From Sanghuangporus weigelae (taxonomy: Eukaryota; Basidiomycota; Agaricomycetes; Hymenochaetales; Hymenochaetaceae), in NCBI GenBank assembly GCA_033182465.1, contig CP137324.1:1550001-1614000 (forward strand): 64,000 nucleotides of DNA. Direction: 5' to 3'. A program made the translations under genes and the position numbers. The notes under the pieces are model-generated. The model made no database searches. It was not told the origin of the DNA and saw only the letters and a list, made by a program, of their open reading frames with translations. The stretch's first letter is position 1, and each line of letters starts with the position of its first letter. Shown here one piece after another: positions 26,949 to 59,936 of the stretch.

Positions 26949-27227
26949 CTACATAATACCGAATAGGTCTTCACGGGATCCAGATGCGACATTTTCGATG
27001 GGTTCCGATGCTGTACACTCAATGTCCTTTATAGAATTGTCACCGCCTGAACACTGCGATCGAGGAGCAGAGATATGGTGTAGGTCGCCTTGCTCCGGTT
27101 GCTAAAACGTGGTTCAGTGTATGAAAAAATTAACCTAATCTCAAGTTCTCCATGAATGACTTACCACAGGCATAGACAGGGCCGTACAACAGAGGAGGAG
27201 AAGCACAAGAAAGTATTTCGAGAACAT
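26949..27227 (-). CDS. small secreted protein SSP-1 (71 aa)
   Basis: Unknown function. Exon 1 (27227-27165) encodes a signal peptide (MFSKYFLVLLLLCCTALSMPV). A phase-0 intron (27164-27102, GTAAGT...TTTTAG) follows at once, and exon 2 (27101-26949) encodes 50 residues of acidic/polar sequence with two cysteines 11 residues apart (QCSGGDNSIKDIEC), ending LFGIM. Frame-checked. A TATAAAG box lies at 27471-27465 on the same strand, 238 bp before the ATG. The layout (signal peptide exon ending Pro-Val, then phase-0 intron) is shared with three other genes in the window at 49.2, 58.4 and 59.6 kb. Mature sequences are not obviously alignable, so common descent is inferred from architecture. Confidence 0.6.
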
Positions 27228-27559
27228 CGCTCTGAGCCAAGTTTACTAAGATAGCGAGGTTGCGACGGACAAGTTTACTCACAGCGGGTTTTTGGTAAAT
27301 TCAGGGGAGTATATGCGCAGGATCAACCTTGCGACTAAGATGACTGGGAGAAATTGAGGAAGACTGGGATGAGGTGCGAGAGGACGACAATGAACCGCGA
27401 GAGAAGGATATCAGAGCAGACTAGATATCATTCTTTTTGAAGTAAAATGGTTTGGAACACCTCGCTTTATACGTGGTGGATAAGAAGGATTCAGCTGTTG
27501 TCATACCGGTACCGAGGAGCAATATATGAAGAATGTTGATTGATGTTGCATCATGTTGT
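27228..27559. other. promoter region upstream of SSP-1
   Basis: About 330 bp without a supported gene. It carries TATAAAG (27471-27465, minus strand) facing SSP-1. Confidence 0.4.
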
Positions 27560-27629
27560 ATCGTTCAGCTGTCCTCACATCTAGGAGTATCTAGGTATAA
27601 AGATCGTTGCATATCAAACGAATGCTCAG

Positions 27630-28303
27630 ACACCAGAGATCTTCATAATTTCATAGTGGGGATCGTCCAAAGCTTTGCATACAGCTCTTGTAGCTGCGGT
27701 CAAAGTGAAGTCGTATCGATATTGCTGTGTGATGACAGAATACGCACGCAGCATTGGAATGTCAGGATTCAGTAAAGTCTGCACAATAGTACCAAACCTT
27801 TCAACGAGAACAGCGAGCAATGGCGACAAGTATCATTATCAGCTTGTGAGGTAGGCTCGTAGTTGATGAAATACATCCGCAAGGCACGAGGATCAGCGTT
27901 ACGACTCCTTGATTGTCCCGACAGTATGATTGAAATCTCTGTCTCCTGATCTCATCGGCAACCATCATCAGCACATTGCCGCAATGCATCAAAGTGCGAG
28001 TAACAGATTGTCGAAGCTGTTTAGAGACATGTCCGGAGATATATTGCTCTGAAAAGCCATACAATCACCATCGAGCTGGGAGCAGATCAACCATGAATCG
28101 TCAAGTGATACCTCAGGAGTCAGGACCGAAGCGAAGGTTCCGATGATCAAGCGGGTGCGTAGAGAGGAATGAGAATACAGAGAAGCAGCCAGGAATCGGC
28201 ACGAAAGCCTTTGTCTGTCCGCGAGAGATGGTGGTTGTGCGGATATAAGATTAGACACGGACAAAAGCATTTTGCGCCGAATGCCAATTTCCTCGGCTGA
28301 CAT
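27630..28303 (-). CDS. unrecognised gene or decaying gene, divergent from citrate synthase
   Basis: A clear first exon starts at ATG 28303 (MSAEEIGIRRKMLLSVSNLI, helical and Leu/Ser-rich) and has a good donor at CCTGAG|GTATCA (phase 0). Downstream, coding-like helical segments sit in different frames: KQLRQSVTRTLMHCGNVLMM near 28.0 kb and MLRAYSVITQQYRYDFTL near 27.7 kb, the latter ending at a stop near 27.63 kb. I could not find one splice model that joins all of them, so either an unusual intron set or a decayed gene is possible. No family recognised. Its start lies about 190 bp from that of citrate synthase on the other strand. Confidence 0.35.
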
Positions 28304-28494
28304 GTGATTTCCTTTCGTTCACAAAGTCACGATTGTGAATCATTGGTCGATGGCCGGGTCTACAGTTCTAGTTCTTTGCTTGACCGGCCCCCGAATAGAC
28401 TATTTATTTCCATTTTCCTTTCTCTTCCTTTCCATCATCCACTTGACCTGGCAACGACGAGTAGTGAAAATTCCGTTACCTTTAGGACGAAAGT

Positions 28495-30962
28495 ATGGGA
28501 CGACCAACAGCTAAAGCTCCTACGTCGACTGCTCCTGAGGATTCCTTGACTGTACAGGACAACCGTACGGGCAAGGTGTATATAGTTCCGTGAGTATGGA
28601 TTTTGTTTCCGACTCAGAAGGAGGTAATTGCTGAAGCTAGATGACACGTAGGATCACGAATAATACGGTACCAGCAACATCATTTAAGCAAATTGCCGCA
28701 CCGCGTAAGCCGGGAGAGCGGGAAGAGAACGAGGCGGAGCGGGGACTTCGTGTTGCGGACAAGGGTTTCTTGAACACCGCCGTCATTACCTCGGAGATCA
28801 CCTATATCGATGGAGAGAAAGGAGGTATGCACGTTTGCGATGCGCCTGAGTTATGAATTGTTGCTCATCCTATATCAGTGCTTCGCTACAGGTATGATCT
28901 TGGTCCAGAGCTTGTTATAAATGGACATTTTATGGAGCATGGCACAGAGGATACCCGATCGAACAGCTCGCTGTGGACTCTTCTTTCTTAGAGACAGCAT
29001 ACCTGCTTATATACGGTAATCTGCCCACAAAGGAACAATATCATGTATTCGAAGGCGAAGTGATGCATCACAGCATTGCGCACCAGGACGCAGAAGGCCT
29101 ATTTCGTGCTTTCCGGTATGTTTTTTCCATCAAACCTTAGACTAATTTCATGTGAAACTGAGTGATAATTCAAGTTATGACGCGCATCCTATGTCAATTT
29201 TGACCAGTGCCTTCGCTTATTTAGGTTCTATGTATAGCGAGGCACGTTGATTTCACTTCATTTACGCCTTAATTAAGCTGAATATTGGACATAGGCCAAC
29301 CCGTCTTTGCAAGGGCAATCGCTATACACGAAGAGTGATGCAGAGAATCTGGCGAATATGGACAAGCAGATTTATAGACTGATAGGCAAAGCGACTACTC
29401 TTGCGGCGTATGTCTGTTTTCTTCTGGAGTGCTTTGAAATTTACGATGCATTATTCTGTGTAGCATGGCCTATCGTATTCGGCAAGGTAGGAAATTCGTG
29501 ACTCCTCCAGCAGGATTGAGCTACACGGCTTCGTGAGTTGGCTCTGCAACGCGTCCGGAAGATTCGGACCAATGAAATTATTAGGTTCTTGTATCAACTG
29601 GACCACCTCGGTGAGGAGAGCTACAAACCATCTCCTGTTCTCGCAAAAGCTTTGGATGTGCTATTCCTTCTACATGCGGATCATGAGCTTAATGCCTCGT
29701 GCACGACTGTCCTTCAGACAGCCAGTTCACTTGTGGATCCTTATTCTGCTGTCGCGTTAGTATCTGTACATTATGTTTTCTTTGCTGTACCGCTGACCCA
29801 TGGATAATATTTAGTGCCGGTTGCGCTTCCTTATAGTAAGCTTCTTCCCTTTGCGTTATCATGTCGTTTCCTAATTTCTTACTTGGTATCAGTGGGCCCC
29901 TTCATGGTACGGCTTTCGTTTCATTTTGAAGTTCAACATTAATTCAACACTTCCTTTAGGTGGAGCAAATGAGGCCGTTATCCGAATGCTCATTTCTATC
30001 GGCTCCCCGGATAATGTCCCCGCGTTCATTGAAGCCGTGAAGCGACGGGAGAAGGTCTTGTCTGGCTTTGGTCACCGGTAGGCTTTACTACCCGTTCTTT
30101 TCGGACGCTAGCTAATTGACGAACGTTGCAGCGTCTACAAGACCGTAAGTTTCTATCTATGCCTGTGGTAACGTACTCAACATCGGGCGAACAGACAGAC
30201 CCTCGATCCTTCATTATTCGGAAAACAGCTGATGAGGTGTTCAAAGTGTAAGGCATAAAACTCGGATGGCCTGACGTACTTATGCAAATTTTTGCGCAGG
30301 ACGGGTAAAGACGAGCTACTCGAAACAGCAATGCGGCTACATGACGTCGCGATGAACGACGAGTACTTCATCAAGCGAAAGCTGGCACCCAACGTAGATT
30401 TCTGGAGGTAAGAAAGCAGACATTTCGCTTGACGGACCATCTGACGTTTTGCAGCGGCCTTATATACCGTGCGATGGGTGAGTACGATATTATGTCATTT
30501 ATGCGCCGCTTCTCACCTGTCACTAGGCTTCCCTCTTGACTTCTTCCCAGTGCTGTTTGCTGTCCCTCGAGTGGTTGGATGGCTTGCACACTGGCGACAG
30601 GTATGCCTGCATTTCATTGATTGGTGATACATTAAATTGAAATTATGAAGATGATGCTTCAACCTGATGGTGTCAAAATTTGGCGACCACGCCAAGTACG
30701 TGTTTTCCTTGCGAATCAAGCGAAGGGAAGGACAGGACTAACAACGATTTGCTGTAGATATATGTTGGACCGACCAGGCGAGACTACGTTCCCATGGAAG
30801 ACCGTGTCGCCGTGAATGGGCCGAAGAGCACGCCAACGCCAGTTAAACACACCGGGTGAGTATGCCCGTACTCCTTTTTGGACGAGTCTTCCCACTAATA
30901 CACATGGTAGACAAAGCAAGAGGACGATGCTAGCGGCATATGTTGGGAAGAGTAAATTATAG
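28495..30962 (+). CDS. CIT2: citrate synthase with C-terminal SKL (peroxisomal type)
   Basis: Condenses oxaloacetate and acetyl-CoA. 19 exons, frame-checked, 495 aa: 28495-28589, 28652-28824, 28879-28891, 28948-29115, 29175-29241, 29295-29407, 29464-29532, 29585-29755, 29815-29835, 29893-29906, 29960-30077, 30132-30144, 30195-30247, 30300-30407, 30455-30477, 30527-30600, 30651-30695, 30758-30855, 30911-30962. Exons 3, 10 and 12 are only 13-14 nt. Family blocks: [29 protein letters not shown], catalytic histidines in HADHELNAS and LYGPLHGGANEAV, catalytic Asp in [25 protein letters not shown]. There is no mitochondrial presequence, and the last residues GKSKL are a peroxisomal targeting signal, so a glyoxylate-cycle or methylcitrate role is likely. 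The intron after 29241 appears to use a GC donor (GAG|GCACGT). The symbol follows the yeast peroxisomal isozyme by analogy. Confidence 0.9.
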
Positions 30963-31276
30963 ATACAGTGTCTGTTGTGAAATGATTATTAGAATAGAAT
31001 AATGTCGCTCAACGTACCTGATTTTCTTAGAAATGAATAAAACGAGTAATGCAGGCGGTGATATTCAAACTCCGCAATCAGATGCCACCCGTGAAAGACG
31101 AGGACGGCAAGTTCCGGTTGTTCGGGCGTCGAGAGAGCCAAGGAAGGGAAGGACTACTTAGCGTCTTTTCTATCAGCTCCTTTGTTTCCCCCGCCGCCCA
31201 TCACTTTTCCTGCCTTCGTCCCCTCTCCTCTCGCCCTCATCCATCCGCGGCTCACGCCTCTGTATCATCTTCAAAG
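30963..31276. promoter_or_regulatory. promoter of GPI-anchored protein
   Basis: 314 bp: 3' UTR of citrate synthase and a strongly pyrimidine-rich tract (about 31185-31255, mainly C and T) just before the next start codon, a common initiation region in fungi. Confidence 0.4.
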
Positions 31277-32164
31277 ATGTTCTCGACACTCCTTACTGCC
31301 ACGCTCCTTTCTGCATTCGCCTTCCAGAGTGTCCTCGCTCAGGACCAGTTTGCGATTTACACCATCGCTCTCAATCAGGTGAGCTTGCGTGGCCCCCCGG
31401 AAAACGATCAAAAATCGTGAAGATGGATGCTGATGTATCCTCGTCGTGATTTGTTCGCGATTTTTATGATTAGTGCGAATCTGCCCATATCACTTGGACG
31501 CAGGCAAAAGCACCATTTAACTTGGCTGTCGTCCCGGTTGAAGACCCTTGCAACTCTATCCTGTCAGTGAAATTTTGTCTCGTTTATCTTACATCGATTT
31601 TCTAACTTGCCCGCTTGATTTGCAGTGTTGACCTCGGTGACCATGAGCATCTTTCCATGACTTGGCCCAATGTCACCGTACCCGCCGGCACGAAGGTTAT
31701 GTTCTCCCTCTTGGACTCGAGCGATCAAGAGGCCTGGTCTGGTGAAGTACGCGTTACTCCCAATCAAGCGACTGAGAAGCTATCTGGATGTATCTGATTG
31801 ATTCTTTTTACCCTTTTTCAGATCACGGTCGGCGAGGGTAGCAGCGCCTGCCTGCCAGGCGCGTCATCTGAGGCGGCCTCATCAACTGGACTGTCCACTG
31901 TTTCCGGATCTGCTACGACGTACGTCTCTTTCTTCGTGTTGACTGTTGCACGAGCTGATAGAGTTTTTCCCACTTAGGCTTACGCTCACGTCTTCATTCT
32001 CCACTGCTTCCGCGTTTGAGTCCGAGACTGCTACAATCGTTGGTGCTGCAAACGCTGGGACTGTCGGCAATGCTCCTTCCGGTGCCATGCCAAGTGTGCG
32101 CCTACCTGCGGCCGTAACGGTCCTCTCTTCTGTGGCGGCCATCGCTGCTGCTTTGGCCTTCTAA
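31277..32164 (+). CDS. GPI-anchored Ser/Thr-rich cell-surface protein (Kre9/Knh1-like domain)
   Basis: Five exons: 31277-31378, 31474-31562, 31626-31746, 31822-31919, 31978-32164; frame-checked, 198 aa. A cleavable signal peptide (MFSTLLTATLLSAFAFQSVLA) is followed by a beta-rich domain of about 90 residues (HITWTQAKAPFNLAVVPVED ... LSMTWPNVTVPAGTKVMFSL ... GSSACL) of the type found in fungal Ser-Thr-rich GPI-anchored membrane proteins related to Kre9/Knh1. A Ser/Thr/Ala-rich linker and a hydrophobic C-terminus (VTVLSSVAAIAAALAF) fit GPI attachment. Three cysteines remain in the mature ectodomain. A role at the wall or plasma membrane is inferred; many paralogues are usual in mushrooms. Confidence 0.8.
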
Positions 32165-33548
32165 GGCCTCTAAATGTCAATATACCCAGACGCATAAGCT
32201 AGTCGCCAAATGGGCACTGGCGGAGCCGTCGTCCATTCCTTCTTGTACATTCCTTCTCGTTTTCTTTTTTCTCTTCTTAGATACCACAATCTCCCTGCAT
32301 TTGCTTGACGCAAGTTTTAGTCTGGTCATTGCAATCACGCACGAAAGTTGCATGCGGCTTCCTAGCGTATCAGCGATTTCAGCATTCAACATCTGACAAT
32401 CTGTTGCTCCTTGTTTTTTATTCCATAAGCTATCCTATCGTTCAGGAAACGCATTTGGCTCTGCCTTCATTGTGCGTATGGCAATTTTTTTTACACACAT
32501 ACCGAGATGTTAGCTCACACTCCCTCCCCCTTCGTGTCCTGTACTCAACTCGGCTTTTGACTCCTTGTTTTGTTTTGCTTGGATATGACATACATAACAA
32601 TGTAGTCGGGCTGAAGGATACCTGGTTCACGAGGTGACATACACTACTCCATGACAAGTCACGATAAGTGGTAGGATCATCTTATACCAGACCTTTTCTG
32701 TTGACATTTTAGGTACTTTATTGGTTCTACATACATAAGGGTTAGTGGAGTCGGGCAACGTCTTCTTGTTGTATCTCTGTACACGCGTTTTTAGCTACTT
32801 CAATCATATTAATGTTATAAATTTTCCCCGGACACTGTAGTCGATTTTGGAAACTATAAGACTGATAAAGAGAAATAAATGCAAAGAGGGGGCGTCCCAT
32901 GGATGAATACGAATGTAGATGAATATGTACGTACGCCGATATCCCGGGGAAAGAATATTACGGGACAGTGCAAATGGCCATGATTAATGAAATATAACAG
33001 AACGACGAATAATCAGGTGGAATATTTTGTTTTGGAGAAAGATTTTATTCAAGGGTCCAGTAGATGTGCTGAGGCTGACGTAGGGGCACATCTAGCAACT
33101 ATAAGTACCGATGACCATTGCTGTGTGCCCCATGGGGTAGAGGAGCCCTCTCGCCAGCGGTACTACTGCTTCATGCGAAAGCCCCTAACGCGAAAGGCTG
33201 CAACAAAGAGAGAGAAACAGGAGGTGGACTATTTTTAAACTATATTCAGAAGCTTCGGGCACGTGGACTGACGTTTCTCGTCGGCATCGCAGTCGGAAAC
33301 CCAAATTCCAGCCAGCAGTACTGATTCTGGTCCTTATTACAAGTATTTTGTAAAGTTATGCGACCTCGTAAAACATCAAATGTACACATCTAAGCAAAGT
33401 ACAGAAGGAACGAAGGATGGAAGTTCGGATGATATACATACATGTGTACGAAACGTACGTACTTACAAACAGAGACAGATGATTATTAATGCTAATGTAA
33501 CAGAAACCCGAACTGCTAGCCATAATTACTACACGCTCGGTTTTCGAA
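32165..33548. other. tail-to-tail intergenic region
   Basis: About 1.4 kb between two stop codons. It contains the 3' UTR of the GPI protein (T-rich, about 32240-32600). The remainder has short unrelated frames with no recognisable protein, splice model or repeat. Confidence 0.4.
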
Positions 33549-35038
33549 TTATAAATCTATCAAACTGTTCGTGTTCGCAGGCGACGGATCCGTTACAGCT
33601 CCACCTCCAGAGTTCTTCCCAGCAGTAACCGTCTTTCCTTTCGTAGGCTCTATAGCCGGTCCAGCAAGTAATATCTCGTCCTCTTCCTCCTCTAGGAGAT
33701 CATCGTCTTCTCCTTCGTCCTCGGAGTCTGAAAGAAGCACGAGTAGCGGCTGTGCGGGAGTCTTGCCCTTGCCGTTTGCCACGTACGGCCCCTGAGCGAG
33801 AATAGTGTCTCCTGTGACGCTGCTGTCGCTGTCTTCGTCCTCCGGTAGGGCGATTGCGCCTACCCGGCGTGATAAAGCGTAACGTAACCCGACAGGTATA
33901 AGCACTCCGACTACAACAGCGCTGAGCCCTAGACCGTTCCGCCACGAGATGAGATGGAAGTCCGCAGCGCTCGTCATGTTGTCCAGTCCACCGCCAATTG
34001 TCGTATGGATAACAGACACACCAAATATGCCAAAGAACGTGCTGATCCAGAACGGAATGATATCAATACGTAAGTGAGGAGCAAGTACGTTGACGACCCA
34101 ATGGGGCGGCAACGGCGCTATTCGCAGGACTATGAGGTAGGAAAGGAGATTTGCGCGTTGTTCGGCGAGGATTGTACTCCATCGGTCTAAACGCGCGGCC
34201 CATTTCGGGAGGGTTAGTAGCGCAGGACCGAGAGCCGCGGAGATGAGATAGCAGAGGGTTGCGCCTGTTGCGACGCATGTGCACACGAGAGGGAGAGCAA
34301 TCGGGACGCCCCATACTGCGCCACCAAGAATTGATAGATACATTGACCCAGGAAGAGAGAAGGCTTGGAGGCTAGAATTGATGATATGAGTAAATATTCA
34401 AAAGGAAGTTCGCTTCCGAGGTGTGAACAGGTATACTAAGCGCGTTCGCGGGGATCAGAATGAATAAAGACTCACAATAGATACGTTGTAACATAGCAAA
34501 CGACGACGCGGATTGGATAAATATCACGGTATTTCTTCAGAAGATAATTGAGATCCTGCAATTGAGCGAACGACTTGGGTACGTGAAGGAGAGGGCGATC
34601 TTGTCTACACAGCAAATGAGATAACAAGTTTATTTGTTCCTGTGAAAGTATAACTTACTCTTCTAATGGCGGTAAGGCGAGCCACAAGGTACCGCCGAGG
34701 ACTAAGGTGCTGACAACAAAAAGCACAGACATCTTAATCCCAGCATTTAACAATATCCTTCTAGAAGATATATTGCTACTAGGAGACATAGGCATTGTTG
34801 CACCGTAAGTTGACGAACCCGATGCATCCGACCGCAATAGGGGTGACCGGTCTGAACTATGACTTCTCACTGAGACTGGCGACAGTGAGCGCGGTGATGA
34901 TGGACCTGGACGAGGAATGGTCGCCAGGGTGTATGCCGAAGCATTTGAATGTTGTAGGGCATTGTGCCCAAGAGTTGAAGAGCTAGCGACCGGCGAGCCA
35001 ATCACAGACGCATAATGGGGCGGAGATGCGCTCGGCAT
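33549..35038 (-). CDS. VTT-domain (TMEM41/DedA superfamily) membrane protein
   Basis: Three exons: 35038-34659, 34604-34476, 34371-33549; frame-checked, 443 aa. About 95 disordered Ser/Pro-rich residues lead to a first membrane helix (MSVLFVVSTLVLGGTLWLAL). Then come FAQLQDLNYLLKKYRDIYP, FSLPGSMYLSILGGAVWG, LVCTCVATGATLCYLISAAL and NLLSYLIVLRIAPLPPHWVV, the order and motifs of the VTT domain. TMEM41B and VMP1 relatives are ER lipid scramblases needed for autophagy and lipid droplets; this member is nearest TMEM41. The C-terminal about 110 residues are acidic and disordered (LLEEEEDEILL). The start at 35038 (MPSASPPHY) was chosen; a longer upstream reading exists but looks non-coding. Confidence 0.82.
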
Positions 35039-35725
35039 GGGCGACGAAGATTCACACCAGCGGGTGCCCAGCACGTCGGGAATGAGAGCAGCGACGATGA
35101 GATACTTTGGACAACGGCTGGCGGGTAGGTGAGAGTAGGAGCGAGAGAAAGTGGAACGGCCTGGAGAGGTGGGGCGATGCAACGTTTGTCCTCCAATCTC
35201 CGTGAGGCGTGTCAGGTGATGAGGTAAGCAATCGTCAGCACGAATGACTGTCCACCGATTTTTGTCCCGCTTTTTCTTGCCCATCACCATCGTCCGTCCT
35301 CAAAAACGATGCAACTTTGCCTCGGGATTCTAGTCTATATCTGGACTCTGTCGATGCTCGAGGACTGCCAGCTACACCTTGGCTGAAGTTCGACTCAAAG
35401 AAAAAAAATACGACCATTTCCAGACCTGTTTGCCACGCGAAATTTCCTCACGTTCTGACGCATTAATCCAGTCCAATCCGTTGGCTATGCTTAACTTGGG
35501 CCCTGGGTCCTGGTACACTCTACTCCTGCGTACCGACTGGTTACTTTTTCAGAAATGGCGACTTGTTTTGTTGACATTAGAATAAAGCAAACAAAGGCGA
35601 AGCCTTAGAGCAAGAGTAACGCTTGAAAGGGAAATTTGTCGTTGATAACCATCGGTGTCTATCACGTCACTTTGCTGCTTACCTCTTACTGAACGTCTAC
35701 TGTCCTTTGCACCTTTCTGCCCGAA
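35039..35725. other. divergent intergenic region, VTT protein / nucleotidyltransferase
   Basis: About 690 bp between two divergent genes; nothing else supported. Confidence 0.4.
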
Positions 35726-38868: not shown

Positions 38869-39895
38869 ATGGCACAGTCTAAATTACTACTCGCAATTTC
38901 TTCCCTTGCTATTCTACTGAAGGATGGATGCAGGCATGGTCAGTATCATGTTTAATAAGACCGATATGACCTGCTGAGCAACCTTCATCACAGGACCCGA
39001 CAGAACTTGAAGCCCAGATCGTGCAAGACCCAGAGCAAGTTGAAGAAGGTTTATGTCAGTACGAAATGCGAATCATTGTGAGTATGCGTCATCTATGTGG
39101 TGGCGAGTAGATGCTGATGTTCAACAGATCTGGTCTACTGCCCTTTTTGTGTCAAGTCAGACTATCGCTATCGGTGGTGCATCCGGGACGATGATGAACT
39201 TCGTTGCTTCTGCGTCGTGTCTTCAATTGCTTGTAAAGCCTCTTGGAGAACGTCGCGTTGCTCTTACCTCCATCGCCTTTGCCATGATCGTGTCTCTTTG
39301 CGACCTTTACCTTGGAGGAATTACAGCTGTTTTCGTCTGCTATCTAATGACGATTGCCTTGGGTGCCGTCATTTTCTGTTTAATCGTTGCAAATAATTCT
39401 AGAGCAGCAAGGAGGGCTTCAAATGATGTCAATCTTTTTCCAGTTGTAAGTACACCCCAACAGAATTTTCGACAGTTACTCAGTCCGCTTTCTCTCTCTC
39501 GCTAGACAATACTTATCATGAGGCAACTGATTGAGAATGACATTGTCCTGATGAACTCCGACTCCGACATAACAGCGCTACATAACTTTCAGAGTGGCAT
39601 TTTCGCTGCATCGTTTATCCTATCCACCATGGCTCTCTGGCTTCAGGCCATCGGTATCCATCCCCTGAATCCGATGCTTCGCACGTCATACTCGATTGCG
39701 ATTAGAGAGAGGCCTCGTGCAGTCGCATCCATCCTGTATTGGAGTGGTGCAATGCTCACCCTAGCATATCTTGTCATCATTATCATCATTTCTTCTGACG
39801 GCACGCCCATCCTCGTGAAGATTTCTTGCGCTGCGTTTGGGACGTACACTGTCGCAGATCTTCTCAAGAACAAAATAGATACCAAGGAAGACTAG
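38869..39895 (+). CDS. multi-pass membrane protein B (paralogue of 21.0-21.8 kb)
   Basis: Function unknown. Best model: exons 38869-38949, 38994-39077, 39128-39445 (318 nt) and 39506-39895; frame-checked, 290 aa. The last two exons are secure and the first two less so (the first donor is GTTTAA). There are about five to six hydrophobic segments, including LCDLYLGGITAVFVCYLMTI, SGIFAASFILSTMALWLQAI and AVASILYWSGAMLTLAYLVI, and a charged C-terminus (KNKIDTKED). It is a clear paralogue of protein A on the other strand 17 kb away: identical 318-nt exon, identical intron phases and a nearly equal last exon (390 against 387 nt). It begins just 140 bp after the nested transposons. Confidence 0.65.
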
Positions 39896-44353: not shown

Positions 44354-44384
<31 letters not shown>

Positions 44385-49008: not shown

Positions 49009-49223
49009 TTAACTCTGTGCTATCGACTTGTCATCTCAAATCAAGCTTGTGCTCCATGCAGTATATGCATCGTGCAAATGCTTAATATGAATTCTTTTGC
49101 ATTGCCCCGGGCCTGCTCGGAGCTCTCTTGAAATGAGGATAATATATCTTACTAATACATGAAGTGCTCTTAATACGTGCAAACTTCCTTTTTCTACCGC
49201 TTCGTGTGGCTCTAGTGGAAGAA

Positions 49224-49639
49224 TTAGTGTCCACAGCCGCCCTTGATGAATTGGCAGAAACCTAGATGAGGAAATCTTGGGTTATTGAAGATGTTGTCCT
49301 CCAAAGGCTTCACAGCACCCAGCAATCCGTCGCTTTTGTCCCTGTTATCATCTTTGTTATTCTTAGCAGGTGCAGTATTTTCTTTATCCGTCTTAGATGC
49401 TCGCCCAGTCTCCGTCGGTTGGCTTGGTACAAGTGACGTCGGCCGCTCTCGATGTGGCCCCGTTGCCGATGCGGATACATTCAGGGAACTCGCATGATCC
49501 AATTGGTCGGATGTACCCTGAAGAAGATAAGTTCATGTTTGCATAACAGCTGCGCTGACGTTCGGAAGCTCACGACAGGGGCAGAAAGAACTCCGGAAAT
49601 AACAATCAGAAGAATGAATACGAGACGAGGTCGAAACAT
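49224..49639 (-). CDS. small secreted protein SSP-2 (119 aa)
   Basis: Unknown function. Exon 1 (49639-49574) encodes a signal peptide (MFRPRLVFILLIVISGVLSA) ending Pro-Val. A phase-0 intron follows (GTGAGC...TTCTTCAG), and exon 2 (49517-49224) encodes 97 residues: a Ser/Thr-rich part, a very polar Lys/Asp/Asn stretch and the tail NNPRFPHLGFCQFIKGGCGH with a C-X6-C pair at the very end. Frame-checked. Those are its only cysteines. Same exon layout as SSP-1, SSP-3 and SSP-4; the C-terminal cysteine pair is shared with SSP-3 and SSP-4. It lies tail to tail with RPS20. Confidence 0.62.
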
Positions 49640-50835
49640 TTTTTTTTGTTTCTGAAAGGCATTAGAACAGAAAGAGGCATCAAATCGTGTGTCCATTTCG
49701 CAGAATGATAGGAATGTACCTTTGATACGAGAAGTACGCCTGCGTAGGCAAGTCGCGGACCAGCGCGCAAGTAGTTGAGGGGCAAGGGGTCTGAGGACGC
49801 CGCTTGATCTGGTGCTAGGCTGTCGTCGTCGACTCTTTTAATACTACGATTCGATTTGGCCAATGGGAAATACTACTTTCTATCGCACGGTGTTCCTTAG
49901 ATCATCACTGCGGACTTTCTCCGCCCGTGCATCAGACATCTTTTGGCTCTGGATACGCCGTGGCATTCGTTCGTATCTACACATGAAGATGGGAATCTTA
50001 GCCATCATCACTGAATGCAAGAGAGCTCCAGCGGTCTTGGTATTGGTCCCGAACTATAGGATCGCCTTTATGTATGCGGGAAGAGGACCGTGGCTGAGCA
50101 TTGGAGCCGCAACGGTAACATCATGTTGAGCTGATACCGGTCATACACAAATATTCTGCGTCGAATGGCGATGCCGCATCCGACGCCCGGTTAACAGAGG
50201 AGACTACGGACCCGATTTAGGTGACCAATGACACACATATCATTCATTGATCAATATCCTATGGCAGCACGGTTACTCTCGGCCGAATAACGAACAGAGA
50301 ATCCCGATTGGTCTATCGCGGTTCTGTCTGTGACTGTTTGTCTTGCAGAAAACGCTGAGGGTCAATCTGTGTACGTGGCACCGATCAAAAAGGCAGATCA
50401 CCTCAGATCACTACCGGTTTTCACGAAGCGACGGTCGCTCACTCCTCTTGAGCTTACACTGTGTGGTTCAGGAAACGAGGAATCAAATTCATCAGGAACA
50501 TGGCCGTGACTGACTATTGCTTCCGCTCTACGCTGCCACTGATGATATATATATTAGTTTTTTCGAGACAGCATCGGATTCTGATATGGTCGGTATCCCA
50601 ACTATCATCGTGATCTTACGATGCCTGCCTCAGAATGCGCCACATGGCTGTCTGTAAGTGTCAAAACCAAAGCAGGCTCGTGCGGCGAGCCCGAGACTCA
50701 CCGCTGGACGTTGATCCCTCGGTTGTTCTACTATCTACTCGCTTCAAGTGCTGGACACGGAAAGCCTGTCTTTCTTTCGTTTCAAACGTCGTCACTCTTT
50801 TATATTCTGCTGCTAGCAGCGGATACCACACGACA
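49640..50835. other. intergenic region upstream of membrane protein
   Basis: About 1.2 kb. One plus-strand frame at 49863-50129 shows no domain and I do not support it as a gene. No repeat or RNA gene recognised. Confidence 0.4.
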
Positions 50836-52522: not shown

Positions 52523-52742
52523 ATGGGCTAAAGAAGCGTTCATCCATTGATAGGGTATCTATACATACAGTGTAACGTATAGTGTACATACGGTATATAT
52601 GATCGTGGGACGCGAAAGCGGGCGGCGACAATGTCTTTAAGTTCTACTGTACAATTAGCCGTCATTTCCGCCGGATACCACGGCTCTACGACAGGTAGAG
52701 AATAAGTTATCGTGAATAAGTCATGAGCGTTCAGATCCGCCA

Positions 52743-55700
52743 TTAAATGTAAAGTATATATGAACCGATGACCGGACGGTGATCGCTCCGCCCTTCTAAT
52801 TGTCGCATAGCTTGATCATCAAGAGACTTATAGCTCAGCGGGATGATTTCTCCGCGGCGAGGCTTATGTGACTTAGCAGGCAGAGGCTCCTGATTCTGTG
52901 AAGTCTCATAAGTGAGGCTAGCGGCCAAAGGTTCTATTTCGGTGTCCCGGTTGAAGAACGGAAGCCGTAACCATCCCCGGTTTGATGTCGTACGCAACCT
53001 CGCGACGTGATCCTTAGGAGGCACCGGCGGAGGTTCCTGATTTGCCGTCTCTGCAACAGCTGTGGCGTCCTCTGGGAGAGCTACAACCGGAGCAGATATC
53101 ACTGGCATCGCACTATAAGCTCGACTGCGCCGTTTGCGTGTACTTGATGTTATGAGAGGCGTGGTTGAAGTCGGTTCAATCGATCGAGATTTCAACAGTT
53201 TCGGATTCCGCGCCTTGCGCATGTTGACAACGTTCACGAGAGACTTGACCTTTAACAGTGCCGACTCTTTCTCAAATCCTAGAGAGACTTGGTCCATTAA
53301 GGGCTGGGAGTCTGATCGAGCCGTTGCTGGTCGCGGTGAGTCCTTCTCCGGAAGTGGCGGGGCAGCATTGGCCGTTGAGATGGAGGGTAAAGATGTGAGT
53401 GATGTCGTACGAGCTCGAGATGAATACGGTCGGAATGCTTGCGAGAAGAAAGCCAGCATACGCGGTCCAAGCGCACTACTGCGTGGATCCGAACTCTCGT
53501 CTTCGGAATCAGGCTTCGGTCGGATAGTGGTCCTCCACAATATTCTATCGCACCTATCATAATTATCCGTTAGACGGCCAATACAAGCCCAAAATCGGAC
53601 CACTCACCAGCTCGGAACGCGTTGCTTACTGGACGAATCATACGCACCCGTATCAGGTTCCTGGCGAGTATTTTCGGTTCCCTTGGCACTCCCTGGTGTC
53701 TTTGCGCTCTTTACAGACTTCAGACTTTTCTTAGATGACATACGACGCAGGTCGCTATGAGACCTGCCTAGCTCGATAGCTGATGCTGCTGCACGAAATG
53801 CTGAAGTAGTACTGTCCGAGTTCGTGCGGCGAGATTTAAATTGAGGGAATGAAGCAGAGAAACCGCTATGCTGAGATGTCTTGGATACTCTGCGTACTAT
53901 CGGTTGTCGAGGAACAATTGGCCGGACCACGGAAATCCATTTCGCTTTGGCTTTCAACGCGGCCTTCGTTATAAATAGCTTTCCCACTGGGGTATTGTTA
54001 TTCGTGGGAGCATTGTCGTCATTGGTCTTGCTTGATGATTGAGGACTTGTAGAGGGCGCGAAGAAACCGTCATTGCCACTCGAGGAACCATTTCCTGCCG
54101 CTCTGGATTGCATAGACGTGGCGCTGACCGCAGTAGATACAAATGAACCATTGTCCTCATCCGCATCCATAGAAGCTCCCTGACGTTCGTCAGCGACTTG
54201 TCTCGCGTCGAGCTCTGTCTCTGTCTCCTGGAGCTCCGATAAGTTCTGGTTGGATCGTTGCCCAAGCCAGCGTTTGCTGCCAAGGGCTCGTCCAAGTTCC
54301 TTGGAATAGACTGACTTGTCTCTCTTAACTGACTTCAAGACGTTGTACTTGAAAGTCGGAGGAAAGTTTATGGGAGCTTCATTGAATCCCGTGAAGGCTT
54401 GGCCTTTCTTCATGAGCGAGAGTAGCTGGTCGAAAGTTAGCGCTTCATCATAAGCTATGAACACAGAAGTAAGATCTTTAAGGCCCAATAAACTCGGAAT
54501 GAAAATACCTTGGCGCGAAATCAACCAGTCTGCATGTAGTCTAGTGATGTCCAACCGGAAGTTGAGGTCTCCGAACAGAAAAGTATAGTCAAACTTGTCC
54601 GTCAAGTCTGCAATGAAAGAATAAGCCCAGTAATAAGAGTAGTGCATCATTCCGACCTTCGGACATAACACGAGGATCATCCTGTGAGAGAAAATCGTTG
54701 ATTTGTAGTTCCGTCTGTGCTTCCCATTATCTCAAGACGTGCAAGTGTAGAAGTCTAAGACGCATGCATACCTTTATCTTTTGGAAGTTGGCAACTCGAG
54801 TCATCGTACGATCCTCGTGCGCTGAATGAAGTCATGTCAATAGATTCCCTATCACAACAATAAATCTGGTCACCTGCAAGATGCGCGTTGACAAAGAGCA
54901 GTGTCGTCCCGTCAAGATTAATGCTAATACCGACGCCACCCTTATTGCCCAGTCGTCCACCTATAATACCGGTTGAAACTGAGGATCTGGAAATACCTGT
55001 GGTCCTTGCTTAGAAGAGCTCGATGAAGCGAGCTAATCACCGACCTCGCACAAGTGGCTTCAGATCACGATATATGAAAACAGCCATATAGATGCCCATG
55101 AGCCTCTCCTTCGCTAGGAGCTCATAGGGTCCGATATGTGCTTTATCTTTACACCTATGCTTGTACTTCTTCTCTGGGTCTTTCTTCTTCTTTTCGACTT
55201 CCGAAGAGCAGATGTCGTCATCCCGCTGTTCTACTCCACAATCAGGCTGCTTAGGCGGACCTGATTCTGTGCCAGACTTTGCAGCTTGTGAGTTATACAG
55301 TTCCGATGCAGATGATGTTCCTGCGCCGTCCTTGCGCTGACCCAAACCATGGCAGTACCATTCCTCAAGGATCCAGCTCCATCCAGATGTTGGCCCATGG
55401 GAGCTAGCATCACCACTTGGCGATAAAGGAGGGTTGGATGGAGTGGTGCCGTCGGGCTCTCCCTCTTCGTCCTTGTCGTCTTCCTTGCCATCCCTGCCTT
55501 TCTTCTTCTTTGAACCTTTCTCGCTTTCCTTAGTTCTATCCTTCTCTTTGGGTCGGAAGCTAGCACCGAGTCCCATGGGAAGGCCTAAGATGTATCAGCC
55601 ATTTGATGCCGCATTCATGAGTGTTATCATACTTGCCTGACACCGTTGGACACTCTTGGCCAGCACTAGCAATCCATTTTTCAGCACCTGCCGACTCAAG

Positions 55701-56226
55701 CTTCCTGCGGGTACTTACACTATGACAACATGATAGGGATGGCCGTCTTCCATTGACATGTTCGGAATTCGAAGCTTGTCAGGCTCGTTTCTTGGACACG
55801 GGACATACGGAGGAACGGTACCAAGTAAATCCTCCAAATTTCCCTGCAAACCGATTTAGTATATGAACGGAAAATTTCCGACACGATGCGTGCCTTTGGA
55901 AGGGAATCATGCATATTCCAAGACACAATACGGATTTTGAGAAAGCGAGGCAACGGACGAGTAGACGCATCACTGGAGACTTTCAGTTCAGGAGAAATAG
56001 GAGCGACGACTGCAGACGCCCTTGGCGAGGAAGTGGTAGGAAAAAGAGACTGGAGCCTAGTGAGAATGGTCGGTTGTCCTATAATGGCAAGATGTCAGTG
56101 AGCTCAGGCCTATTCATGAATACGTGGCATACCTGTCCGCGGTCGACCTGACCTTCTAGGTACATCTTTCCCTTCGTCTCGGTACAGTGGCAGGACTTCT
56201 ACACACCTGGTTGAGGCGCGGGACAT
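52743..56226 (-). CDS. inositol polyphosphate 5-phosphatase with two long insertions
   Basis: Removes the 5-phosphate of phosphoinositides or inositol phosphates. Eleven exons: 56226-56133, 56078-55894, 55843-55719, 55665-55637, 55584-55045, 54996-54874, 54821-54772, 54681-54657, 54607-54509, 54454-53608, 53553-52743; frame-checked, 975 aa. Signature motifs in order: IRIVSWNMHDSLPKG, VVIVAGQECPTVSGLPMGLG, RLGNKGGVGISINL, FVNAHLAAHED, FLFGDLNFRLD, SWCDRILWRT and GRSDHRPV. Insertions: about 140 polar residues after QECP, about 240 between the GDLNFRLD block and WCDRIL, and about 220 between WCDRIL and SDHRPV; all are Ser/Lys-rich and look disordered. Introns after 55894 (GC|ACGC) and 55637 (GC|AAGT) appear to have GC donors. 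Membrane recruitment domains (SAC, C2) are absent. Confidence 0.9.
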
Positions 56227-57045
56227 CTCAGCTAGTTAAAAGGACTTTCGGATTGCGCTCAGTCGACGGGATCGGATTGTTACGCGAAGGGAAGGATCCA
56301 GATAGTGAACCGACACGATTGTCAGGCAACGCATGCAAGAACGGAATTCGGGGAGCGTGAAGTCGAGCTATATTATTTTTCTGGTATTGGGTCTGCGATC
56401 CACCGTTTCGAATCAAACGAGGGCGTCTGTAAAAGAGGTGACGAATGATGCAAAACACGACGGAACTGGCAGCAGCAAACCACGCTGTTTAAGTACGTAA
56501 ACCACGAGTTAGCACTGGCCAAAGCGTACGCACGACAGATAACAATGACACCGACAGCACAGACACCCTAGAGCAGTAATGGCCTCCTACTTGAGGCGCG
56601 CCCAACGGACTGGAAGATCGTAAAATGCAGCATGGCACAGAACAGCCGGCAATTTCGGTTAAGCAGATCATGTGATGATGGAAAGCACGTGCCCTGACTG
56701 ATTCAGAGATGCACCAATTATCTTATTGGCCAGCTAAACATCTGTTGAATCTCACTAAGCGTCGACATGCTAAAGGGACAATTCCTTGATGCTCAGATGG
56801 CGTCGCTATGTAGGGAGGCGATTAGTTCTTTCCTTGCGTCGAAGGGAACATACTATACGAAGATATCGTCTAGGCATCCGTGTTAGAATATATCGAGCCC
56901 CGAAGAAAACCTCGGCTATGCTCAAGTCCCAAACGAAAGGGGTATTTCACTTGCTCGCTCTATGTTCGCTTAGCTACTCTCGATCAAAGCACTACATCCT
57001 TTCAAGAAACTTGAAGACACCTTGTAACAAGTTTTGTCATTTTTT
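56227..57045. other. upstream region of 5-phosphatase
   Basis: About 820 bp. Contains the 5-phosphatase promoter; no other gene or repeat recognised. Confidence 0.4.
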
Positions 57046-57809
57046 TACTGCCTTTTTCATATGTATTGTCACTCGCGACTTCTGTGATTTTTGTCACACA
57101 GAACACCTCAAAATATAAAAATCACCATATCTCACTCAATTCTTGACCGTTTTGCATAATCTAAGTTGCTAAACTCATAGTTTTAAAATATGCTTCAAAA
57201 TCTAACAAGGATGAAGAGAAATGAGCAAAGAATGAGTGAGATATGTCGTAAAAGGTCGATTTTAGACACATCTTTCATGTGCAGTTTTTCCTGCCCTCAT
57301 CCCTGCTTCTACAGTCCTATAAGCAAGTCCAAAATGATATGATTATTTTATTTTAAGTTTACAGGCTGACTTTGAGCTCTATTCTGTGTTGTATCTGCTG
57401 GTTTGATGCATGTCTGGGCTGAGCTCAAGCCTACCTTTTCTCAAGGACCCCCAGACCTCAAAATAAATTTATTCTTAGGAAATCTGATGTCTGAAAATTC
57501 ATATTATACCAATAGCATCACTTTGGTGCAGTCTAGGTTGTTGTAGCACCCAGTCTGAGGGCAGGAAAAACTGCACATGAAGGAAGTGTCTAAAATCGAC
57601 CTTTTACGACATATCTCACTCATTCTTTGCTCATTTCTCTTCATCCTTTTTAGGGTTTGAAACATATTTTAAAACTATGAATTTAGAAACTTAGATCATG
57701 CAGAACGGTCAAGAATTGAGTGAGATATGGTGATTTTTATATTTTGAGGTGTTCTGTGTGACAAAAATCACAGAAGTCGCGAGTGACAATACATATGAAA
57801 AAGGCAGTA
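57046..57809. mobile_element. foldback-type element with about 250-bp inverted arms
   Basis: Element 57048-57807 (760 bp), flanked by TA on each side (57046-57047 and 57808-57809). The left arm (57048 to about 57299) and right arm (about 57557-57807) are near-identical inverted copies: CTGCCTTTTTCATATGTATT at the left end returns reversed as AATACATATGAAAAAGGCAG at the right end. The inner ends CAGTTTTTCCTGCCCTC and GAGGGCAGGAAAAACTG also match. The spacer of about 257 bp has no coding capacity. TA flanks suggest a Tc1/mariner-type target duplication, but 2 bp is weak evidence. The arms should form a long hairpin. Confidence 0.75.
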
Positions 57810-58412
57810 ATTATGCGGAGGCTACGCCTTACAAATAGAAATTCCTTCAGATTCAATCACATCCAGACGAATTGAAACCAATAATAAGCGCTAGCTTCTG
57901 ATAGAGGCACGGACTGGGATGTACTGCACAGGCCAATACCGGTTCATGAAACAAGGATCCTGTGTCCTTATCAGCGCGCTGTGTGGAAATTGTCATGGCT
58001 ATGTCTAAAGGTCAAGCTTCATCAAAGGATGGTCGTTCAGCACACAAGCGTCCAATGACGTGCATCGAGAGCTGAGACGGGTTACTACTGCTCCAGATGC
58101 GATTTCTAGCGCGACATATGAACTCAGAGCCATCTTCGACTCGCGTATTTTTGACACCGTGAGCTTTTCGCTTTGGCTTATAAAATGCTGCGACTTGAGA
58201 GCAGACGAGAGGCATAGAGCTAGTCTCCCCGCAGTGTTAATATCTTGTCTCTCGGTCAACACTCTCCGCTCAACTTACCTTTCACGATAATTCTATACAT
58301 ATACAAATCTTTGCGCTGGTACGCACGGTCGATAGTCAGGTAGCGAATTAATACAGGTAAGCAGGCTTATGTTCATACTTCTGTAACAGTCTCACTGAAA
58401 ACCGTTGGGTAC
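57810..58412. promoter_or_regulatory. upstream region of SSP-3
   Basis: About 600 bp with no supported gene. TATAAAA at 58179-58185 lies 234 bp before the SSP-3 start, about the same distance as the TATA box of SSP-1. Confidence 0.4.
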
Positions 58413-58772
58413 ATGTACAGCATGCTTCGTGTTCATCTCTTCGCCTTTTCGTTCTTTTCCCTTCTTTCTGGGGTGCTCTCTGTGCCTGTAGTGAGTATCT
58501 GTTTTTCCTCCGCTCACCGCCTACTTAGAGGGGCTCTGTAGCGATATGCAAGGCCAACTACATCAGGACATCTGATATCCCGGGATATCATCGGTCGGAA
58601 TGGAAACTATTCGCACTCTGACAATGATGGGAACAAAGGAGGCAGTGATTCACTCCTCGGCGATGTCGGGGACACTGCCGGAAACGTCGTCGAGCATACT
58701 GAAGAGCTGTGGGGTGGTGGTAGAGGAGGACCCGAACTAAACTGCGGCCAACACATGAGGAAGGACTGCTAG
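58413..58772 (+). CDS. small secreted protein SSP-3 (102 aa)
   Basis: Unknown function. Exon 1 (58413-58490) encodes a signal peptide (LFAFSFFSLLSGVLS then VPV; a second ATG at 58422 could also be the start). A phase-0 intron (GTGAGT...CTGTAG) follows, and exon 2 (58542-58772) encodes 76 residues: a Gly/Asn/Asp/Ser-rich middle (NGNYSHSDNDGNKGGSDSLL) and the tail NCGQHMRKDC, a C-X7-C pair ending on the last residue. Frame-checked. Same architecture as SSP-2 and SSP-4; SSP-4 lies 0.9 kb downstream on the same strand. Confidence 0.62.
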
Positions 58773-59636
58773 ATCGGTTTTACTATTCGCACTTTCAGTC
58801 ATTCTTCTATTTATTTCGTCGAGTACCATTCAGTGGCTGAGTATTAGCATACATATCGAATAGCTGGTTTGAAATGACTGCCCGACGAACAATGATCAGC
58901 GATCCATGATGGTGCTGCACTCAATGGAAATAATCTGTGTCTCGAGAGCCAACATATAGAAAGCTTTTTCTTTTTCGGAACGGTTATTTTTTGAGTCAAG
59001 CAATGCCTCATATGAATTTGATTCAGAGGCAACTCAGTCAGTTCTCATTGCTCTTCTATGCCCCCGGTCTGTCAGGAAACCAGTGACCATCGCTATAGTC
59101 ATGGAATGATCAAAATCTGGTAGTACTATAGTGAGTGATTCCATCATGATGTCCTTTGTGCGGTGTAAACTATAATCTTCATAGCGACAATGACGATGCC
59201 AACTACTCTGACACAGAAGAGCATCATGATCATACCAAAACCAGTATCTCAATCCAAATATAGAAGTTCCTTAGGCATTCAGAATGCATCATCATGATGT
59301 ATCTTGAACGTTGCTCCCACAACGAACAGATCGTACACAAGGACAAAAGCTTCACCGTAGATGATCAATCACGAAGACGCCTCAGTTTCGCAAGGCAGGA
59401 AGCAATGCTTGGGGCAACTCCATGATATTCGGAAGTCAAGGACATACTTATAAGGACTCGAGGACGGCGCAGAATAATCAACCAAAAGGCGGCCGCCTCG
59501 AGTTGAGCTCCAGATCGCCTTTCCCTTTTTTACTCGTTCTCGGATAGATCCCGGAGATCTTTCTTACACCAGCTGTGAGTCTGTCAATTTCAACTTATTC
59601 ACGAAAGCAGTATTCCCACACTATGCATTAGCCAAT
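58773..59636. promoter_or_regulatory. intergenic region SSP-3 / SSP-4
   Basis: About 860 bp without a supported gene. A TATAAG element at 59459-59464 lies 178 bp before the SSP-4 start. A GC-rich palindrome-like stretch (GGCGGCCGCCTCGAG) occurs at about 59488. Confidence 0.4.
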
Positions 59637-59936
59637 ATGGTCAGCCTCCGCTTCGTTGCTTTCGCTGTCTTCCTTCATGCTGTAGTAGCTACGCCTCTCG
59701 TGAGTTCTTGACTACATTGGGCCCTTTGTTACCCGATAGTAGTCGCTTACCATACACATACTACATAGTACATCCCAGCGAACATGCCTAGTATTAGCAG
59801 ACGCCAAGACGTTACGACCACTTCCGACGTCCCAGAACCATTAAAAACTCACATTAATATTGGCCTACCCGATTCGGCTCGACTTGGTAGCCCAGACCTT
59901 GAGTGTGAAGACGCTGTTGCAGGGTTCTGCGAGTAG
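59637..59936 (+). CDS. small secreted protein SSP-4 (76 aa)
   Basis: Unknown function. Exon 1 (59637-59699) encodes a signal peptide (MVSLRFVAFAVFLHAVVA) ending Thr-Pro-Leu. A phase-0 intron (GTGAGT...ACATAG) follows, and exon 2 (59769-59936) encodes 55 residues. These include a dibasic SRRQ, a possible Kex2-type cleavage site, and the tail LECEDAVAGFCE, a C-X7-C pair next to the C-terminus. Frame-checked. Its architecture is that of SSP-1 to SSP-3; with SSP-3 it may be a tandem pair that has diverged. Confidence 0.6.

What the first reader, a model, noticed from the sequence alone, without database searches (positions are those of the whole stretch)
26949..59936. Four small secreted proteins with one exon layout, three with a C-terminal C-X6/7-C tail
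SSP-1 (26949-27227), SSP-2 (49224-49639), SSP-3 (58413-58772) and SSP-4 (59637-59936) share a strict plan. Exon 1 is the signal peptide and stops, phase 0, right after Met-Pro-Val, Ala-Pro-Val, Val-Pro-Val or Thr-Pro-Leu; a short intron follows; exon 2 is a polar 50-97-residue chain. SSP-2, SSP-3 and SSP-4 end FCQFIKGGCGH, NCGQHMRKDC and ECEDAVAGFCE, a cysteine pair 6-7 residues apart at the extreme C-terminus and the only cysteines of exon 2. Mature sequences otherwise hardly align, as expected for fast-evolving secreted proteins. Three have TATA boxes about 180-240 bp before the ATG. I do not know a described family with this definition.
Basis: partly seen in the sequence, partly recalled or inferred. 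Interest (0 to 1): 0.75.

Follow-up and report, generated by a model that had tools for sequence, protein, structure and literature searches.

The report
Cluster of fast-changing secreted mushroom proteins
One stretch of a mushroom-type fungal chromosome carries a small family of related genes for short secreted proteins whose gene layout has lasted while most of the protein changed, and three of them end in a possible small disulfide ring; it looks like a new family of a familiar kind, with no known function.

Summary
The four gene models are in the sequence as described and belong together. Each has a signal-peptide-like exon ending X-Pro-Val/Leu at a phase-0 consensus donor, a 51-69 nt intron and a short polar second exon. 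I add four things. (1) All four have a candidate 5'UTR intron ending 1-12 nt before the ATG. (2) A fifth member with the same layout lies 67 kb downstream (C7:1676831, minus). (3) SSP-2, SSP-3 and SSP-5 are related in exon 1; SSP-2 and SSP-3 also in exon 2. (4) The tails of SSP-2, -3 and -4 align without gaps over 13 residues (P-x-L ... C). Genome-wide, a 24-base DNA form of the exon-1 end matches five places in 33.9 Mb: the four genes and one site that is not a signal peptide. So this is one local, fast-diverging paralogous family; the searches made found no member elsewhere. The cysteine pair marks only three of five. Function is inferred: a secreted effector- or defence-type protein, perhaps with a C-terminal disulfide ring. 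No RNA evidence, orthologues or structure model were obtained. Verdict: a new family of a known kind (clustered orphan small secreted proteins recognised by gene structure).

The parts
26949..27227 (-). SSP-1 coding region: exon 1 27165-27227 (MFSKYFLVLLLLCCTALSMPV), intron 27102-27164, exon 2 26949-27101 (50 aa, no C-terminal tail)
27232..27282 (-). SSP-1 candidate 5'UTR intron (GTGAGT...CTCAG, 51 nt, ends 4 nt before the ATG); no YTNAY branch site in the range searched
27466..27471 (-). SSP-1 TATAAA, -244 from the ATG
49224..49639 (-). SSP-2 coding region: exon 1 49574-49639 (MFRPRLVFILLIVISGVLSAPV), intron 49518-49573, exon 2 49224-49517 (97 aa, ends PHLGFCQFIKGGCGH)
49652..49719 (-). SSP-2 candidate 5'UTR intron (GTACAT...TTCAG, 68 nt, ends 12 nt before the ATG; weak donor, CTAAT branch-like site)
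58422..58772 (+). SSP-3 coding region: exon 1 58422-58490 (MLRVHLFAFSFFSLLSGVLSVPV), intron 58491-58541, exon 2 58542-58772 (76 aa, ends PELNCGQHMRKDC)
58357..58420 (+). SSP-3 candidate 5'UTR intron (GTAAGC...TACAG, 64 nt, ends 1 nt before the ATG; removes the upstream ATG at 58413; two other donor/acceptor choices with a GTACGC donor exist)
58179..58184 (+). SSP-3 TATAAA, -243 from the ATG
59637..59936 (+). SSP-4 coding region: exon 1 59637-59699 (MVSLRFVAFAVFLHAVVATPL), intron 59700-59768, exon 2 59769-59936 (55 aa, ends PDLECEDAVAGFCE)
59575..59631 (+). SSP-4 candidate 5'UTR intron (GTGAGT...ATTAG, 57 nt, ends 5 nt before the ATG)

Best explanation
The genes are paralogues: one locally duplicated, fast-diverging family of small secreted proteins in what is probably a mushroom-type basidiomycete. 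It has four members in the window and a fifth 67 kb away. Shown from sequence: a three-exon layout (5'UTR exon; signal-peptide-like exon; short second exon), a phase-0 intron directly after X-Pro-Val/Leu/Ala, family-level similarity of exon 1, related exon 2 in SSP-2/SSP-3, and a 13-residue tail pattern shared by SSP-2, -3 and -4. Inferred: the protein enters the secretory pathway; signal peptidase cuts before X-Pro (VLS|APV, VLS|VPV, ALS|MPV, VVA|TPL, VRS|APA), leaving a polar, probably disordered chain. In three members the two end cysteines close an 8-9-residue disulfide ring, which displays a variable loop as the binding head. Separating the conserved signal exon from the variable exon lets the mature part diversify while secretion is kept. 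The most likely role is an effector or defence protein acting on another organism or on competing hyphae. My weights: family and secretion 0.85; ring formed 0.5; outward-acting role 0.35.
For: Splice models and consensus sites. 4 donors against 2 in 20 resampled sequences together. Full layout scan of 264 kb: 6 starts, of which 5 are SSP-1 to -5; 20 resampled sequences gave 0-4 each (28 in all), 7 in all with Pro in the last three residues of exon 1 against 5 in the real sequence. 5'UTR intron: strict form before 1.06% and relaxed form before 4.7% of 9689 ATGs; SSP-1 to -4 have it in 3 of 4 and 4 of 4, and SSP-5 has one of the same kind. Genome-wide pattern [VA]x[SA]xP[VL]|GTRAGY: 5 hits, 4 being these genes, backward control 7; VLS[AV]PV|GTRAGY exact: only SSP-2 and SSP-3. 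Exon-1 similarity of the five: mean score 27.0 against 18.1, reached in 0 of 1000 shuffles. SSP-3/SSP-5 exon 1 score 54, reached in 0 of 2000. Synonymous sites are saturated but replacement sites much less changed (SSP-3/SSP-5 exon 1 pS 0.78, pN 0.33; SSP-2/SSP-3 22-residue exon-2 block pS 0.75, pN 0.43), as expected of translated genes. Tail: 22 of 2607 stop-to-stop ORFs of 50 aa or more in 264 kb end C-x6/7-C-x0-2; 4 of the 22 have PxL just before, and 3 of those 4 are SSP-2, -3, -4. A partial second copy of the SSP-5 3' region lies near it, so the locus is still turning over.
Against: No RNA evidence. The genome patterns were written from the genes themselves, and their totals are no higher than the backward controls. 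SSP-4 exon 1 has no significant pairwise match (p 0.055-0.62) and SSP-1 exon 1 matches only SSP-2 (p 0.009; others 0.23-0.45); these two rest mainly on layout, place and (SSP-4) tail. The 20 pairwise protein tests are not corrected for number. Exon 2 aligns significantly only for SSP-2/SSP-3 and weakly for SSP-1/SSP-3. DNA of the gene regions does not align between five of six pairs tested. Two of five members lack the ring, so it cannot be the whole function, and tail models alone are no rarer per sequence than 3 real against 3 in 20 resampled. In the 13-residue tail of SSP-2/SSP-3 pS and pN are equal (0.44 and 0.43), so no constraint is shown there beyond the shared residues. No second genome, no expression data, no structure: the one model job had not finished.
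Confidence: 0.62

Rival explanations
1. Signal-exon shuffling: only the promoter/5'UTR/signal exon was duplicated locally and captured different second exons, so the mature proteins are not related.
For: Exon 1 similarity is stronger than exon 2 similarity; exon 2 of SSP-4 and SSP-5 does not align significantly with any other, and of SSP-1 only weakly with SSP-3. A phase-0 junction would allow it.
Against: SSP-2 and SSP-3 align in exon 2 (p 0.001). The SSP-2, -3 and -4 tails share P-x-L and the last Cys at the same spacing over 13 residues. SSP-1 and SSP-3 exon 2 align weakly (p 0.034).
Confidence: 0.17
2. C-terminal peptide-hormone or pheromone-like precursors: the disulfide ring is cut free and acts as a short cyclic signal between hyphae, as in animal precursors that end in a disulfide ring (analogy recalled).
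For: Ring at the extreme C-terminus after a polar chain in three of five; small gene family with variable ring residues.
Against: No dibasic site directly precedes the ring: RR only early in SSP-4 exon 2, RK inside the SSP-3 ring, none in SSP-1, -2 and -5 exon 2. Two members lack the ring.
Confidence: 0.1
3. Chance: unrelated short ORFs with hydrophobic starts, or generic signal exons, that happen to look alike.
For: Short ORFs and GT/AG pairs are frequent. One other signal-peptide-like exon ending xP at a phase-0 donor exists in the genome (C5:2006907). A layout-only phase-0 scan of the 264 kb finds 12 donors, 8 of them outside this family and nearly all not signal-like by eye.
Against: Resampling controls (12 phase-0 donors against 9 in 10 resampled sequences together, while phases 1 and 2 have 2 each), locality of the genome-wide pattern matches and coding-type substitution.
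Confidence: 0.05
4. Decaying relics: an old secreted family being lost in this lineage, mostly unexpressed.
For: SSP-1 and SSP-5 lack the tail; a partial copy of the SSP-5 3' region lies 2.3 kb from it; another local duplicate is stop-bearing (methyltransferase-like copy at 22.9-23.1 kb).
Against: All five keep an open frame, donors near consensus and promoter-like elements; synonymous saturation with retained residues.
Confidence: 0.06

Closest known systems
Blumeria Y/F/WxC effector candidates (CSEPs), PMC2886064 and PMC3582587 (passages seen)
   Same: Short secreted proteins of low mutual similarity, held together by one intron of constant place, phase and short length; paralogues that cluster in the genome.
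   Different: There the intron is phase 1, 218-329 nt from the start codon, with a Y/F/WxC motif near the mature N-terminus. Here it is phase 0, 63-69 nt from the start codon, no such motif, plus a candidate 5'UTR intron. Only five genes.
Aphid bicycle genes found by gene structure, PMC9168663 (passages seen)
   Same: A fast-diverging putative effector family recognisable by exon structure rather than sequence.
   Different: Many small phase-2 internal exons, insect genes, CYC motif; no relation by descent claimed.
Hydrophobins (PF01185), of which this genome has 16 matches
   Same: Small secreted, cysteine-bearing fungal proteins (recalled).
   Different: Hydrophobins have eight spaced cysteines (recalled); these have 0-2 in exon 2, and SSP-1 to -4 match no Pfam family (SSP-5 was not scanned).
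Kex2-processed peptide precursors of fungi (recalled, not looked up)
   Same: Secreted polar precursors; SSP-4 has one RR site.
   Different: No repeated dibasic sites and no repeated cores seen by eye.

Membership tests
   SSP-1 to -4 and SSP-5
   Present in SSP-2, -3, -4 only; absent in SSP-1 and SSP-5. Not a defining feature of the whole set.
Blumeria Y/F/WxC candidates | Y/F/WxC motif near the N-terminus of the mature protein | tested here: not met
   Read by eye in the translations: no [YFW]xC in the mature part of any of the five
Blumeria Y/F/WxC candidates | Intron phase 1, 218-329 nt from the ATG (PMC2886064, passages) | tested here: not met
   Phase 0, 63-69 nt from the ATG
Hydrophobin PF01185 | Profile match / eight cysteines (the latter recalled) | tested here: not met
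   0 Pfam families at E 10 for SSP-1 to -4; 0-2 cysteines in exon 2 of all five
Kex2-processed repeat peptides | Repeated cores separated by dibasic sites (recalled) | tested here: not met
   0-1 dibasic pair per exon 2
Secreted proteins with a cleaved signal peptide | Signal peptide cleaved in vivo | not testable with these tools
   Only a hydropathy rule was used; no signal-peptide predictor or secretome data

The most novel reading that the evidence does not exclude
The family makes secreted proteins whose working part is a tiny C-terminal disulfide ring (C-X6/7-C) on a disordered stalk, presented with different loop letters by each paralogue: a fungal counterpart of ring-bearing peptide precursors. 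If so, it could be a self/non-self or inter-organism recognition set diversified at one locus.
Probability: 0.1. Interest if true: 0.65.

Novelty: new member of a known kind. Interest (0 to 1): 0.42.

Why it matters
Many small secreted proteins of fungi are orphans that sequence search cannot group. Here gene structure (a 5'UTR intron ending at the ATG, a signal exon, a phase-0 intron after xP) groups proteins that protein searches of the whole genome with each one did not bring together, and it confirmed a member outside the window. If the layout holds in related species, it gives a handle for finding orthologues, dating the family and testing selection on the tail loop. The function stays open, so the interest is moderate.

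Tried and rejected
Protein searches of the own genome with SSP-2, -3, -4, -1 and -5 found the genes themselves and three weak places (C13:312693, E 0.09; C9:238933, E 1.02; C3:2803840, E 0.238). The first is a 122-aa unspliced Ser-rich ORF with a signal-like start (MFKSKLLYFLALVTAVASAPAG) and no tail; not pursued. The third was not read.

My first scanner missed SSP-3 (hydropathy cut-off) and SSP-5 (second exon of 29 aa against a floor of 30). Both cut-offs were then relaxed, so the control '4 against 2 in 20' belongs to the 30-aa version and the five-member control. The relaxed 5'UTR donor rule was widened to take in SSP-2 (GTACAT). 'Shuffles' of the 264 kb are first-order resampled sequences, not exact shuffles. 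Calling a pattern match 'not signal-like' rests on my hydropathy rule and on reading the upstream frame, not on a predictor; the nearest to the line are L049 (47-residue hydrophobic frame, read as a membrane protein) and the near-copies L070/L071 (hydrophobic start broken by charges). Of the 23 matches of the pattern (control 26), 4 are the cluster and I read 7 of the other 19 (L039, L041-L045, L065). The output was cut, so not all weak hits were seen; other hits there had E-values like that of SSP-5 (for example SSP-4 at window-relative 151159, E 0.045), and SSP-5 was accepted for its layout, which the scan did not find at that other place.

DNA alignment of the gene regions (400 nt before to 200 nt after) gave only SSP-2/SSP-3, exon 1 and donor, p 0.033. 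Rejected: a gene at 60452 starting MKSVPV (no signal-exon model); a second intron giving SSP-1 a tail (read by eye). The species was not identified: Agaricus bisporus, also of 13 chromosomes, is reported at 30.7 Mb (PMC7473861, passages), against 33.87 Mb here; a search for the genome size in print led nowhere (listing).


Full report
Setting. The window is C7:1550001-1614000 of a 33,870,148-base, 13-contig genome that holds 16 hydrophobin matches over the Pfam cut-off, against none in 14 control genomes; from this and the short introns I infer a mushroom-type basidiomycete. The species is not known. Among 36 ORFs of the window scanned against Pfam, those with matches over the cut-off name ordinary neighbours: XPG-type nuclease, RMI1, COX11, PH-domain proteins, a methyltransferase, a VTT-domain protein, ARID, Saf4/Yju2, Exo_endo_phos2 and a homocitrate-synthase-type protein.

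Observation. The four models check (coordinates in parts). All four introns of the coding region are phase 0 with GTAAGT, GTGAGC, GTGAGT, GTGAGT donors, 51-69 nt long. Exon 1 ends MPV, APV, VPV, TPL. Exon 2 has 50, 97, 76 and 55 residues, 64-75% of them polar, Gly or Pro. The end cysteines of SSP-2, -3 and -4 are the only ones of their exon 2.

A second shared intron. Upstream of each ATG a candidate 5'UTR intron of 51-68 nt ends 4, 12, 1 and 5 nt before the ATG. A strict version (GTRAGY, acceptor within 12 nt) occurs before 1.06% of 9689 ATGs in the 264 kb and before 3 of the 4; a relaxed version before 4.7% and 4 of the 4. The relaxed rule was widened for SSP-2. For SSP-3 it removes the first ATG, so the protein would start MLRV at 58422.

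A fifth gene. tblastn of SSP-3 against the 264 kb gave MQRIHLVLLSVFILLMGVRSAP at C7:1676831, minus strand (E 0.064; other hits of like E-value exist, so the layout decides). It has TATAAA about 227 nt before the ATG, a 58-nt 5'UTR intron (GTAAGT...CCCAG) ending 2 nt before the ATG, exon 1 ending APA at GTGAGA in phase 0, a 77-nt intron, and a 29-residue second exon without cysteine. Exon 1 aligns to SSP-3 (score 54, reached in 0 of 2000 shuffles) and to SSP-2 (p 0.005). My earlier scan had missed it because its second exon is under 30 residues.

Is it one family? Scanning 264 kb for the whole layout (5'UTR intron, signal-like exon, phase-0 intron) gives 6 starts: SSP-1 to -5 and one that does not look like a signal peptide. 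Twenty resampled sequences give 0-4 starts each (28 in all); starts with Pro in the last three residues of exon 1 number 7 in the 20 together, against 5 in the real sequence. A scan by intron phase gives 12, 2 and 2 donors for phases 0, 1 and 2, against 9, 13 and 17 in ten resampled sequences together; 4 of the 12 are SSP-1 to -4. Over the whole genome the exact pattern for VLS[AV]PV|GTRAGY is found only in SSP-2 and SSP-3; within two mismatches there are 11 places against 15 for the backward control, SSP-1 among them. The pattern [VA]x[SA]xP[VL]|GTRAGY has 5 places (control 7): the four genes and one place that is not signal-like. A wider one has 22 places (control 27): SSP-1 to -5; one other signal-like exon (C5:2006907, MRSYYIFAACVFALLQTGLPALAAPP, in a gene that seems to have further exons and shows no 5'UTR intron); 15 read and not taken as signal exons; and 1 not fetched that has a stop in its own letters. 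A third has 18 places (control 23): SSP-1, -2, -3 and 15 others, all read, none passing the signal rule. These totals are no higher than the controls; what is not chance is that the signal-exon matches sit together on 100 kb of one chromosome. The patterns were built from the genes, so the counts speak for locality, not for discovery.

Sequence relations. SSP-2/SSP-3: exon 1 p 0.002, exon 2 p 0.001 (1000 shuffles). SSP-1/SSP-2 exon 1 p 0.009; SSP-1/SSP-3 exon 2 p 0.034; SSP-3/SSP-4 0.055 and 0.056; SSP-3/SSP-5 and SSP-2/SSP-5 exon 1 as above; the remaining pairs p 0.2 or more. These 20 tests are uncorrected. The five exon 1 together score 27.0 on average against 18.1, reached in 0 of 1000 shuffles that kept the first and the last three residues. 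Exon-1 and exon-2 blocks show saturated synonymous and much lower replacement change (SSP-3/SSP-5 pS 0.78, pN 0.33; SSP-2/SSP-3 exon-2 block 0.75, 0.43), but the 13-residue tail of SSP-2/SSP-3 shows no such difference (0.44, 0.43). The tails line up without gaps from Pro to the last Cys: PHLGFCQFIKGGC, PELNCGQHMRKDC, PDLECEDAVAGFC. In 2607 ORFs of 50 aa or more, 22 end C-x6/7-C-x0-2, and 4 of these have PxL just before; three of the four are these genes. The PxL feature was noticed after the fact.

Turnover. A copy of the DNA behind SSP-5 lies 2.3 kb away (74% over 95 nt and 89% over 37 nt), with what looks like a remnant of SSP-5 exon 2 next to it (read by eye). Other local duplicates are present as well: a three-copy membrane-protein-like family, a methyltransferase pair, and a pair 60.5-61.2 kb / 66.6-67.2 kb. 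So the stretch is one where genes are copied and lost, which fits fast change of the family.

What it does. Shown: layout and relationship. Inferred: secretion; cleavage before X-Pro; a ring of 8-9 residues closed by a disulfide in three members; action outside the cell, most likely against or upon other organisms. None of SSP-1 to -4 matches Pfam at E 10, and exon 2 of SSP-2 and SSP-3 match no PDB sequence at E 10.

Compared with what is known. The nearest kind is the secreted effector-candidate family held together by intron place and phase: the Blumeria Y/F/WxC genes (PMC2886064, PMC3582587: passages) and, in insects, the bicycle genes (PMC9168663: passages). Membership in the Y/F/WxC set is not met (motif absent, intron phase 0 not 1). 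In animals and plants it is phase-1 introns that gather near signal-peptide cleavage sites, and for fungi the cited survey had too few cases (PMC1626468: passages). I found no description of a family with this definition in six searches of the open-access library (listings and starts of abstracts only), which does not hold most subscription papers.

Scores. Real and one family: about 0.85. Interest 0.42: a neat, well-bounded orphan family whose recognition by gene structure is useful, but of a known kind and without function.

Noticed in passing
C7:1676596-1676831 minus (window-relative 126596-126831, outside the window): Fifth member SSP-5 with the same three-exon layout, no cysteine tail.
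   Followed up: yes
window-relative 125370-125853, minus (C7:1675370-1675853, outside the window): Next to SSP-5, another possible secreted-protein gene (exon 1 ... VNALPVPQPLLDSI, GTACGT, 130-nt intron, second exon with RRKR); relation to the family not shown (lowest of 10 comparisons p 0.013, with SSP-5 exon 2).
   Followed up: partly
57045-57313 and 57542-57810: Inverted repeat with 269-nt arms, 94% complementary, 228 nt apart, about 0.6 kb before SSP-3; no other copy in the 264 kb.
   Followed up: partly
20991-21775 minus, 39044-39892 plus, and window-relative 68973-69685 plus (flank): Three paralogues of a membrane-protein-like family (ILYWSGA-type motif) interspersed with the SSP genes.
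   Followed up: no
19426-20004 plus and 22946-23144 plus: Methyltransferase-domain ORF and a nearby partial, stop-bearing copy.
   Followed up: no
60561-61164 minus and window-relative 66639-67237 plus (flank): Two related stretches (RILEIAV...PLD), perhaps an oligoribonuclease-type gene (name recalled, not tested) and a partial copy beside SSP-4.
   Followed up: no
C5:2006101-2007300 (L061), minus: A small secreted-protein-like gene whose signal exon also ends at a phase-0 donor (AAPP|GTAAGC); apparently further exons.
   Followed up: partly
C13:312693-312917 minus (L004): A 122-aa Ser-rich ORF with a signal-like start ending VASAPAG and no intron there; weak match to SSP-2 (E 0.09).
   Followed up: partly
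window-relative 124600-125230 (flank): Stretch rich in tacgcgcgtatac-type repeats between SSP-5 and its remnant (seen).
   Followed up: no
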